Below, in pieces: positions 35,009 to 37,147 of a stretch of 64,000 nucleotides of DNA. Made by a program: the position numbers and the translations under genes. Numbering within the stretch: position 1 is the first letter of the stretch; each line of letters opens with the position of its first letter. The DNA comes from Xanthomonas cannabis pv. cannabis (GTDB lineage Bacteria; Pseudomonadota; Gammaproteobacteria; Xanthomonadales; Xanthomonadaceae). The stretch covers positions 1 to 64,000 of the forward strand of contig NZ_JSZE01000027.1 in the NCBI RefSeq assembly GCF_000802365.1, in the 5' to 3' direction. The notes under the pieces are model-generated. The model worked only from the letters and a program-made list of their open reading frames with translations, was not told where the DNA came from and made no database searches.

Positions 35009-37147
35009 ATGGATCTGGAAGACTGGTCGGCCCGCCTGAAAGTATTCGCCGACGCTACCCGAGTCCGCCTGCTGGCCTTGCTGGAACAGGAAGAACTCAC
35101 CGTGGCCGAGCTGTCGGCCATTACCCGACTGGCCCAGCCGCGCGTGTCCACCCACCTTGCCAAGCTCAAGGAAGCCGGGCTGGTGCGCGACCGTCGCGCC
35201 GGTGTGTCGGCGTACTACCGCTTCGACGAAGTGTCACTGGACCCGGCGCAACGGGCGCTGTGGCTGGCGCTGAGCACCGGCAGCGACGATCCGCTGCTGC
35301 GCCAGGATGCCGAGCGCGTGGCCGCCGTGCTCGCCAACCGCGCCGCCGACCAGAACTGGGCCGATTCGGTGGCCGGCGACATGGAGCGCCACTACTCCCC
35401 CGGGCGCACCTGGGAAGCGCTGGCGCGCACGGCGCTGCCCCTGCTGGAAACCGGTGACGTACTCGACATCGCCTCCGGCGACGGCGTACTGGCCGAACTG
35501 GTGGCCCCGCACGCCACCCGCTACATCTGCATCGACACCAGCGCCCGCGTGGTCGCCGCCGCCAGCGAACGCCTGCGCAAGCTGCGCAACGTGGAAGTGC
35601 GCGAGGGCGACATGCATGCGCTACCGTTCCCCGATGCCAGCTTCGACCTGGTGGTGCTGATGCATGCGCTTACCTACGCCGCAAAGCCGGCGCAGGCGGT
35701 GGCCGAATCGGCGCGCGTGCTGCGCCCGGGGGGCCGCCTGCTGCTGTGCAGCCTGGCCAAGCACGAACATCGCGCCGCAGTACATGCCTACGGCCACGTC
35801 AATCTCGGTTTTGCCGCCAAGGAACTGCGCAGGTTCGTCGAGAAGGCGGATCTGGAGGTGTCCAGCCTGGAGACGGTGACGCGCGAAAAACGTCCGCCGC
35901 ATTTCGAGGTGATCTCGTTGATTGCGGTGAAGCCGGGAATCGGGAATCGGGAATCGGGAATCGGGATTGGTGGAAAACAAAGACACTGCGGCGAGGAGAA
36001 CCGGACCATGACGCACGCGCGCATCCCCACTTCCGAATCCCCAATCCCGTTTACTTTGCCGTGGCTGCACCCCGAGCGCGCTGCCTCGCTGACGGACGCA
36101 TTGCGCGCACGCATCCTCATCATCGACGGTGCGATGGGCACCATGATCCAGCGCCACGACCTGCAGGAACCGGATTACCGCGGCACACGTTTTGCCGACG
36201 GCTACGACAGCACGCACGTGCATGGCCCGGGATGCGATCACGCGCACGCGCCGGACGGGCATGACCTGAAAGGCAACAATGATCTCCTGCTGCTGACGCG
36301 CCCGGAGATCATTGCCGGCATTCACCGCGCCTATCTGGACGCCGGTGCCGACCTGCTGGAAACCAACACCTTCAACGCCACCTCGGTGAGCCAGGCCGAC
36401 TATCACCTGGAACATCTGGTGTACGAATTGAACAAGGCCGGCGCGCAGGTGGCGCGCGCATGCTGCGATGCCGTCGAGGCGCTGACACCGCACAAGCCGC
36501 GCTTTGTCATCGGCGTGCTCGGCCCCACCAGCCGCACCGCGTCGATCAGCCCGGACGTCAACGACCCGGGGTATCGCAATACCAGCTTCGATGCGCTGCG
36601 GCAGACCTACCGCGAGGCGATCGAAGGCCTGATCGACGGCGGCGCCGACACCCTGATGGTGGAAACCATCTTCGACACGCTCAATGCCAAGGCCGCGCTG
36701 TACGCGATCGAGGAAGTCTTCGAGGCACGCGGCGGGCGCTTGCCGGTGATGATCTCCGGCACCATCACCGACGCCTCCGGCCGCACCTTGTCCGGCCAGA
36801 CGGCCGAGGCGTTCTATGCGTCGGTTGCGCATGGCCGGCCGCTGTCGGTGGGACTGAACTGCGCGCTCGGCGCAAAGGACCTGCGCCCGCATGTGGAGAC
36901 GCTGGCGCGGATTGCCGATGCCTACGTCAGCGCGCACCCCAATGCCGGCTTGCCGAATGCATTCGGCGAGTACGACGAAACGCCGGAAGAGATGGCGCAC
37001 ACCTTGCGCGAATTCGCGCAGGCCGGCCTGCTCAACCTGGTCGGCGGCTGCTGCGGCACCTCGCCCGATCACATCCGCGCCATCGCCGAAGCGGTGGCCG
37101 ATCTGCCACCGCGGCAATTGCCTGGCGCGCAGGAGCTGGCGGCGTGA
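35009..37147 (+). CDS. SahR-like ArsR/SAM-binding regulator fused in frame to homocysteine S-methyltransferase
   Basis: A single 712-codon frame. Residues 1-90 are an ArsR winged helix (LTVAELSAITRLAQPRVSTH, then LKEAGLVRDRR). Residues 140-305 are a class I methyltransferase-like domain (VLDIASGDGVLAELV, EGDMHALPFPDASFDLVVL). That pairing is characteristic of SahR, the S-adenosylhomocysteine-sensing repressor of methionine-cycle genes. No stop follows: a GGGAATC repeat (35936-35970) encodes PGIGNRESGIGIG in frame and leads into MetH residues. The regulator part ends near 35940. Whether the full fusion is made, or the second part starts separately at 36008, is not decidable from sequence. Confidence 0.75.
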   Translation: MDLEDWSARLKVFADATRVRLLALLEQEELTVAELSAITRLAQPRVSTHLAKLKEAGLVRDRRAGVSAYYRFDEVSLDPAQRALWLALSTGSDDPLLRQDAERVAAVLANRAADQNWADSVAGDMERHYSPGRTWEALARTALPLLETGDVLDIASGDGVLAELVAPHATRYICIDTSARVVAAASERLRKLRNVEVREGDMHALPFPDASFDLVVLMHALTYAAKPAQAVAESARVLRPGGRLLLCSLAKHEHRAAVHAYGHVNLGFAAKELRRFVEKADLEVSSLETVTREKRPPHFEVISLIAVKPGIGNRESGIGIGGKQRHCGEENRTMTHARIPTSESPIPFTLPWLHPERAASLTDALRARILIIDGAMGTMIQRHDLQEPDYRGTRFADGYDSTHVHGPGCDHAHAPDGHDLKGNNDLLLLTRPEIIAGIHRAYLDAGADLLETNTFNATSVSQADYHLEHLVYELNKAGAQVARACCDAVEALTPHKPRFVIGVLGPTSRTASISPDVNDPGYRNTSFDALRQTYREAIEGLIDGGADTLMVETIFDTLNAKAALYAIEEVFEARGGRLPVMISGTITDASGRTLSGQTAEAFYASVAHGRPLSVGLNCALGAKDLRPHVETLARIADAYVSAHPNAGLPNAFGEYDETPEEMAHTLREFAQAGLLNLVGGCCGTSPDHIRAIAEAVADLPPRQLPGAQELAA
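35936..36050. repeat. GGGAATC repeat at the sahR-metH junction
   Basis: Four consecutive GGGAATC heptamers and a variant (35936-35970) form the left arm; a right arm with CCGAATCCCCAATCCCG is at 36031-36047. It spans the end of the regulator, the ribosome-binding site near 35992-35998 and the first codons of the metH part. Confidence 0.75.
36008..37147 (+). CDS. metH: Methionine synthase, homocysteine-methyltransferase domain (MetH part 1)
   Basis: From an internal ATG at 36008, preceded by GAGGAG about 10 bases upstream, the frame encodes 379 residues equal to the first domain of MetH. The barrel starts ARILIIDGAMGTMIQRHDL. The zinc cysteines are in GLNCALGA and LVGGCCGTSP, which activate homocysteine thiolate. 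The folate and cobalamin domains are in the next gene, so the enzyme is split between two polypeptides. It transfers the methyl group from methylcobalamin to homocysteine. The same frame continues upstream into the SahR-like gene, so this entry is the alternative, separately initiated product. Confidence 0.82.
   Translation: MTHARIPTSESPIPFTLPWLHPERAASLTDALRARILIIDGAMGTMIQRHDLQEPDYRGTRFADGYDSTHVHGPGCDHAHAPDGHDLKGNNDLLLLTRPEIIAGIHRAYLDAGADLLETNTFNATSVSQADYHLEHLVYELNKAGAQVARACCDAVEALTPHKPRFVIGVLGPTSRTASISPDVNDPGYRNTSFDALRQTYREAIEGLIDGGADTLMVETIFDTLNAKAALYAIEEVFEARGGRLPVMISGTITDASGRTLSGQTAEAFYASVAHGRPLSVGLNCALGAKDLRPHVETLARIADAYVSAHPNAGLPNAFGEYDETPEEMAHTLREFAQAGLLNLVGGCCGTSPDHIRAIAEAVADLPPRQLPGAQELAA

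What the first reader, a model, noticed from the sequence alone, without database searches (positions are those of the whole stretch)
35009..37147. SahR-like regulator and MetH domain joined in one open reading frame
An ArsR-type winged helix, a SAM-binding methyltransferase-like domain and the complete homocysteine methyltransferase domain of MetH are encoded in a single 712-codon frame, with no stop between. The regulator of the methionine cycle would thus be covalently attached to an enzyme it controls, unless translation restarts at ATG 36008 (SD near 35992). The junction is a GGGAATC repeat, which seems to have replaced the regulator's stop codon. If the fusion is made, SAH sensing and methionine synthesis are in one polypeptide.
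Basis: partly seen in the sequence, partly recalled or inferred. Interest (0 to 1): 0.75.

Follow-up and report, generated by a model that had tools for sequence, protein, structure and literature searches.

The report
Regulator fused to methionine-synthase domain
In this Xanthomonas species one extra copy of a seven-base DNA repeat appears to have shifted the reading frame, joining a methionine-gene regulator and the first piece of the enzyme methionine synthase, usually two overlapping genes, into one long protein; another Xanthomonas species shows the same kind of join with a different repeat number.

Summary
The open frame is real: 35009-37147 encodes 712 aa (77.1 kDa): ArsR winged helix, SAM-methyltransferase-like domain, then the complete homocysteine domain of a split MetH. 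The regulator is best called SamR, the described Xanthomonadales SahR-like factor. In 31 of 35 genomes of the genus the SamR 'KP' end and the metH1 ATG are exactly 68 nt apart (about four GGGAATC-type heptamers plus a core), and SamR stops at or just before the ATG (ATGA overlap in most). Here there are five heptamers (+7); in X. vasicola two (-14). Both changes put the genes in frame; a third species has three (-7) and falls into the remaining frame. Supported branches separate the two fused species in a samR tree and in an rpoB+gyrB tree, so the fusions are most likely independent. Both halves stay under strong purifying selection, and the metH1 Shine-Dalgarno and ATG at 36008 are kept, so the likely products are SamR-MetH1 fusion plus some free MetH1. 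The repeat did not replace the stop; its copy number decides whether the stop is read. That the fusion is made, useful or switchable within a population is untested.

The parts
34979..35006 (.). 28-bp palindromic operator, presumed SamR autoregulatory site, ending 2 nt before the samR ATG
   Evidence: Identical in 34 of 34 Xanthomonas samR upstream regions extracted (G027 not extracted); only match in the genome to a 20-base pattern of it at up to 3 mismatches; fits the ATC-N10-GAT consensus that Leyn et al. give for SamR
35009..35935 (+). SamR part, residues 1-309: ArsR-type HTH and SAM-methyltransferase-like domain
   Evidence: Pfam/NCBIfam; dN/dS 0.026 against X. vasicola for residues 1-308
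35935..35969 (+). Left arm: five heptamers (4x GGGAATC + GGGATTG); most relatives have the length of four
35970..36007 (+). Core between heptamers and metH1 ATG, with Shine-Dalgarno AGGAG at 35994-35998
36008..36011 (+). ATGA: metH1 start codon with the TGA that is the SamR stop in most relatives, here out of the SamR frame
36033..36049 (+). Right arm: CCGAATCCCCAATCCCG, inverted heptamers inside the metH1 N-terminal extension
36008..37147 (+). MetH1: homocysteine S-methyltransferase domain of the split methionine synthase (379 aa if started at 36008)
   Evidence: PF02574 E=5e-97, N-terminal part of PRK09490 and TIGR02082; motifs GLNCALG and GGCCGTS visible (role in zinc binding recalled)
37464..40217 (+). 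MetH2: pterin, cobalamin and activation domains, separate gene, 917 aa

Best explanation
This is a samR-metH1-metH2 operon of Xanthomonas in which samR and metH1, ancestrally two cistrons coupled by an ATGA stop/start overlap, have been joined by a change in heptamer number (4 to 5 units, +7 nt) in a GGGAATC element at their junction. Every ribosome that starts at 35009 and keeps frame must make SamR-MetH1 (712 aa), so no free SamR is made unless by frameshift or proteolysis. MetH1 can also be started at 36008 from its own conserved ribosome-binding site. Shown: open frame, unit counts, frames, two phylogenetically separated fused species, purifying selection on both halves. Inferred: slipped-strand mispairing as the mutation, loss of termination-reinitiation coupling, dual products, and that the fusion still represses and still serves MetH2.
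For: Junction DNA of 35 genomes: 31 have spacer 68 (30 of the 34, and G027); G000 75, G033 54, G004 61, G024 41 (no heptamers). +7 and -14 both give the metH1 frame; -7 gives the third frame. The SamR tail peptide is unconstrained (pooled pN/pS 1.03 over codons 311-331, 30 species) while SamR 1-308 has 0.022, so what is kept is the position of stop and start. In 20 further genomes of four related genera the tail is 57 to 75 nt, always a multiple of 3, ending in ATGA; Luteimonas has 69 nt and GTGA. Supported branches separate G000 and G033 in the samR tree and the rpoB+gyrB tree, and near relatives of each keep the four-unit length. G000 against G033: dN/dS 0.026 (SamR) and 0.029 (MetH1), against 0.014-0.024 and 0.035-0.053 for G000 with three unfused species. 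SD GGAG or AGGAG 9 nt before the ATG in 30 of 33 Xanthomonas rows, G000 and G033 among them; G024 has it at 7 nt, G018 and G019 have none. GGGAATC arrays vary in length between species (Rehm 2015), and GGGAATC is the unit of one tandem-repeat typing locus in X. vasicola pv. musacearum (one table passage seen).
Against: No protein or ribosome data. One genome per species, so within-species variation was not seen. The fusion-permitting core (no in-frame TGA) is shared by species that are not sisters, so recombination of the junction could mimic two origins. In the rpoB+gyrB tree G000 itself sits in no supported small group. The linker dN/dS of 0.13 in the fused frame rests on 4 and 7 changes, and 19 of its 30 codons are metH1's own coding sequence.
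Confidence: 0.78

Rival explanations
1. Sequencing or assembly error in the repeat: the true allele has four units and two separate genes.
For: Draft genome of 257 contigs; array is a simple repeat; no reads could be examined.
Against: The array is only 35 bp, shorter than usual short reads (recalled); X. vasicola, a different assembly, is also fused with another unit count; 31 of 35 genomes assembled the junction at 68 nt, so such errors are not common here.
Confidence: 0.07
2. Open frame without a meaningful fusion: ribosomes start MetH1 mostly at 36008 and the SamR-MetH1 product is minor, unstable or cleaved in the linker, so the species behaves like its relatives.
For: Own Shine-Dalgarno and ATG conserved; the tail is unconstrained in sequence, as expected of a flexible and perhaps protease-sensitive linker.
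Against: No in-frame stop means that SamR itself cannot be made free by normal translation; SamR stays under strong constraint in the fused species, so a functional SamR moiety must come from the fusion or be cut from it.
Confidence: 0.35
3. One ancestral or transferred fusion shared by this species and X. vasicola, followed by an in-frame change of three units (21 bp).
For: Both have the same TGA-less core type; 5 and 2 units differ by exactly 21 bp; recombination in the operon is possible, since the metH2 linker alleles of the two differ.
Against: Supported branches of the samR and rpoB+gyrB trees both separate them; unfused four-unit species with the same core lie on both sides.
Confidence: 0.2

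Closest known systems
SamR and the samR-metH1-metH2 operon of Xanthomonadales (Leyn et al. 2014, PMC4239095; abstract and passages read)
   Same: ArsR HTH plus methyltransferase-like domain, gene order samR-metH1-metH2, palindromic operator with ATC-N10-GAT
   Different: There separate genes; here SamR and MetH1 form one frame. Words beginning with 'fusion' or 'fused' do not occur in that paper's main text.
GGGAATC quadruplex-forming heptamer repeats of Xanthomonas (Rehm et al. 2015, PMC4692102; abstract, part 1 of 3 of Results, Discussion and passages read)
   Same: Same unit, preference for four units, paired inverted arrays, number of units variable between species
   Different: Reported as mostly intergenic, with a role in phase variation judged unlikely; here the array lies at the junction of two coding sequences and its length sets the frame. 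'Fusion' and 'methionine' do not occur in that paper's main text.
Phase-variable contingency loci with simple sequence repeats (recalled; e.g. tetranucleotide repeats in Haemophilus)
   Same: Repeat-number change shifts the reading frame
   Different: Here the frames give separate, fused or overlapping states of a metabolic regulator and an enzyme rather than on/off of a surface structure; switching within a population not shown
SahR of Desulfovibrio and other Proteobacteria (through Leyn et al., passages)
   Same: Domain plan (recalled) and methionine-cycle regulation
   Different: SamR is a distant homologue (about 30% identity according to Leyn et al.), effector undetermined

Membership tests
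SamR (Leyn et al. 2014) | ArsR-type HTH followed by SAM-methyltransferase-like domain | tested here: met
   PF01022 15-60, PF08241 152-245
SamR (Leyn et al. 2014) | Next to metH1 and metH2 | tested here: met
SamR (Leyn et al. 2014) | Palindromic site with ATC-N10-GAT in the common upstream region | tested here: met
   34979-35006
SamR (Leyn et al. [quoted passage not shown]
   Two strict patterns found only the operon's own site; no weight matrix was built
SamR (Leyn et al. 2014) | Distant homologue of SahR (about 30% identity) | not tested
   no SahR sequence was compared
SamR (Leyn et al. 2014) | Effector (SAM or SAH) | not testable with these tools
   undetermined in the passages seen
B12-dependent methionine synthase MetH, split form | Homocysteine domain plus separate pterin, B12 and activation domains | tested here: met
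   PF02574 whole profile; second gene PF00809, PF02607, PF02310, PF02965; PRK09490 1558.6 bits over the 1497 cut-off for MetH2; the MetH1 half alone (543.1 bits) is below that whole-protein cut-off, as expected of a part
GGGAATC heptamer repeat (Rehm et al. 2015) | At least two units, at least one exact GGGAATC, pattern (GGGANTN)n | tested here: met
   35935-35969
GGGAATC heptamer repeat (Rehm et al. 2015) | At least four intact G-tracts (quadruplex-competent) | tested here: met
   Five tracts here; X. vasicola has only two, so a quadruplex is not needed for fusion; folding of a quadruplex not tested
Phase-variable contingency locus | Repeat number changes the reading frame of a gene | tested here: met
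   between species only: 5, 2, 3 and 4 units give three frame relations
Phase-variable contingency locus | Reversible variation within a strain or population | not testable with these tools
   only one genome per species is held

The most novel reading that the evidence does not exclude
The samR/metH1 junction is a slippage-driven switch with three states (coupled separate genes, fused regulator-enzyme, over-long regulator overlapping metH1) that lets Xanthomonas populations retune the methionine/SAM cycle, the fused state placing methionine-synthase activity and its repressor in fixed 1:1 stoichiometry on one chain.
Probability: 0.12. Interest if true: 0.78.

Novelty: new variant of a known kind. 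Interest (0 to 1): 0.52.

Why it matters
It shows a domain fusion arising, it appears, by change in a short tandem repeat at a stop/start overlap, probably twice in one genus, with the unfused state kept in related species. That makes the first step of gene fusion, and the loss of translational coupling, directly testable. It also gives one concrete coding consequence for the abundant GGGAATC repeats, whose function is called open in the paper read.

Tried and rejected
Hairpin displaying the metH1 start: the two heptamer arms flank SD and ATGA, but the window's junction folds no better than shuffles (z -0.33). Over all 54 rows own arms pair better than arms swapped between species (0 of 10000 permutations as low), but within Xanthomonas alone they do not (33 rows, 2349 of 10000); the signal comes from the other genera (21 rows, 0 of 10000), where, to the eye, both arms change unit type together. 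Several of those species have lost the right arm. So no selected hairpin is claimed for this genus.

Fusion as an old or widespread architecture: not supported. In a draw of 297 genomes of the family (289 with a match) only G000 spans both parts in one match without a stop, and 11 others span with at least one stop. G033 was not in that draw, the list of matches is cut, and a fusion with a poorly aligning linker could show as two matches. In one search all 32 junctions read have a stop: 20 chosen from the family list (all 17 genomes of genus g7 in the draw, and three others whose match began near residue 310), the 11 spanning ones, and Luteimonas.

Sister relation of the two fused species: expected at first from their 96% protein identity, rejected.

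Tail conserved as protein: rejected (pN/pS about 1). The pooled MetH1 ratio of 0.62 was dropped because rows with indels were not aligned; pairwise values are used. G027 (SamR broken by frameshift) and G029 (metH1 broken) were left out of some counts. In one search five loci were missed by the anchor pattern; one search covers them.

Regulon search by two strict patterns found only the operon's own site. Alignments A2 and A3 misplaced MetH1 rows and were not used. (frames of the PF01717 locus) read one strand only and told nothing. Structure prediction was never run. Literature listings: searches on ArsR/methionine-synthase fusion in Xanthomonas (2 papers), repeat-driven fusion of neighbouring genes (1 paper, 1 paper), SamR (2 papers) and heptanucleotide repeats with phase variation (23 papers, 20 listed) showed no title or abstract on this fusion; these papers were not opened except PMC4239095 and PMC4692102, and most subscription papers are not held.

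Full report
What is there. The frame 35009-37147 is open and encodes 712 aa, 77.1 kDa. Pfam places an ArsR HTH at residues 15-60, a methyltransferase-like domain at 152-245 and a complete homocysteine S-methyltransferase domain at 370-696. The remaining MetH domains are in a separate gene, 37464-40217. The upstream TTG at 34952 extends the mechanical ORF to 731 aa, but the ATG at 35009 is the better start: it follows a 28-bp palindrome (34979-35006) that is identical in 34 of 34 Xanthomonas upstream regions extracted, and a 20-base pattern of it matches nowhere else in the genome at up to 3 mismatches.

Which regulator. Leyn et al. (PMC4239095, passages read) describe SamR in Xanthomonadales: a distant SahR homologue, co-localised with metH1 and metH2, with a palindromic motif containing ATC-N10-GAT and an undetermined effector that they think is SAM. 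The window fits the domain plan, the gene neighbours and the motif; the wider regulon, the identity to SahR and the effector were not settled here. 'SahR-like' is fair; 'SAH sensing' is not established.

The window's genus. 

The normal state. Of 35 genomes in the genus, 2 are fused (G000, G033), 1 (G004) is in the third frame with a SamR frame of 383 aa, and in the other 32 SamR and metH1 are not read as one; among the 32, G027 has a SamR broken by frameshift and G029 a broken metH1. In 31 of 35 the distance from the Pro codon of the SamR 'KP' end to the metH1 ATG is 68 nt (30 of the 34 genomes, plus G027). SamR there ends at the TGA inside ATGA, or at a TGA one codon (G014, G032) or two codons (G012) before it (G027 apart). 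The 68 nt are four heptamers and the rest, and the length holds even where the heptamers have decayed (G018, G019). G024 has no heptamers (41 nt) but the same phase.

The change. G000 has five units (75 nt), X. vasicola two (54 nt), G004 three (61 nt). Adding one or removing two heptamers shifts the frame equally, and both give the fusion; removing one gives the third frame. In most species a TGA in the metH1 frame would still block a fusion: it is present in 26 of the 34 junctions translated, and missing in G000, G033, G025, G012, G011, G008, G016 and G024 (G027 also has the TGA-less core). So the fusion needs the TGA-less core and a unit change.

One event or two. Supported branches of the samR tree (34 rows) and of the rpoB+gyrB tree (35 rows) separate G000 from G033. 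In the second tree G033 groups with G008, G011, G016 and G027 (99/97), all at the four-unit length, while G000 itself joins no supported small group. In samR the nearest sequences to G000 are G013 and G012 (93.7 and 93.4%), both four units. Two independent fusions are most likely. The shared core type leaves room for recombination.

What selection sees. SamR residues 1-308: pooled pN/pS 0.022. Tail codons 311-331: 1.03 in their own frame, with 1 of 30 tails holding a stop, against 25 of 30 in the metH1 frame (pairs of species are not independent). The peptide is free to drift but the stop/start geometry is kept. In 20 further junctions from four related genera the tail varies from 57 to 75 nt but always by multiples of 3 and ends in ATGA; Luteimonas (L062) has 69 nt and GTGA. 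With a 7-nt unit such regularity is hard to explain without selection, although the rows are not independent. In the fused pair dN/dS is 0.026 for SamR and 0.029 for MetH1, close to comparisons of G000 with three unfused species: neither half is decaying.

How it most likely works. Translation from 35009 must run into MetH1, so SamR exists only as the fusion unless the ribosome slips or the linker is cut. The metH1 ribosome-binding site is kept (AGGAG, 9 nt before the ATG, in G000; GGAG, 9 nt, in G033; 30 of 33 Xanthomonas rows at 9 nt), so some free 40.6-kDa MetH1 is likely, but the termination-reinitiation coupling implied by ATGA is lost. The homocysteine domain is the N-terminal module of MetH and is already a separate chain in relatives, so an N-terminal attachment is tolerable in principle. 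No match to the N-terminal MetE family PF08267 was found in G000 (3 of 35 genomes match); only a 351-aa frame matching PF01717 was found. MetH is therefore probably needed for folate-dependent methionine synthesis, which argues that MetH1 in fused or restarted form is active. These functional steps are inference.

How rare; 1 fused of 64 loci with both parts (80 examined), and it is X. vasicola; 1 of 297 genomes drawn from the family, and it is G000 (list of matches cut; X. vasicola not in the draw); 0 of 32 junctions read.

The repeat. GGGAATC arrays are a described, abundant, quadruplex-forming repeat of Xanthomonas, mostly intergenic, preferring four units and often in inverted pairs (PMC4692102). 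G000 has 130 forward and 128 reverse matches to a three-unit pattern at up to one mismatch, overlapping matches counted, and none to the reversed control. The repeat here has a weak inverted partner at 36033-36049.

Verdict. The fusion is a derived, repeat-driven frame event between coupled genes, found in 2 of 35 species of the genus. It is a new variant of known things: a SamR operon, a GGGAATC repeat, frame change by repeat number. Whether the fused protein is made, active and advantageous needs the bench.

Noticed in passing
39526-39595: A second heptamer inverted repeat lies in frame inside metH2, in the linker before the activation domain; same linker length in all 19 species where a short pattern found it (of 30 loci tried), in two allele types (12 and 7). 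G000 and X. vasicola carry different types. In the window it folds far better than shuffles (z -3.64).
   Followed up: partly
L025 (G004): Three heptamers: SamR frame runs to 383 aa and overlaps metH1 in a third frame.
   Followed up: partly
L270, L276, L281, L278, L279 (junctions of related genus g7): Both arms of the junction element seem to have changed unit type together (e.g. GGGACCG with CGGTCCC in place of GGGAATC with GATTCCC); own arms pair better than swapped arms in 21 rows, 0 of 10000 permutations as low. Suggests concerted change of inverted arms.
   Followed up: partly
L062 around 3930-4060: Luteimonas sp. Y-2-2-4F carries the same kind of paired heptamer element at the samR/metH1 junction with a GTGA overlap, outside Xanthomonas.
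   Followed up: partly
L037 (G029): SamR intact but metH1 broken and no metH2 match at E 1e-50 in this genome of the genus.
   Followed up: no
37150-37400: Between metH1 and metH2 there are repeated CTTCTCCCGC...GCGGGAGAAGG palindrome-like units (read).
   Followed up: no
G000:C251:7587-8561: No PF08267 (MetE N-terminal) match in 32 of 35 genomes of the genus; G000 has only a 351-aa frame matching PF01717.
   Followed up: partly
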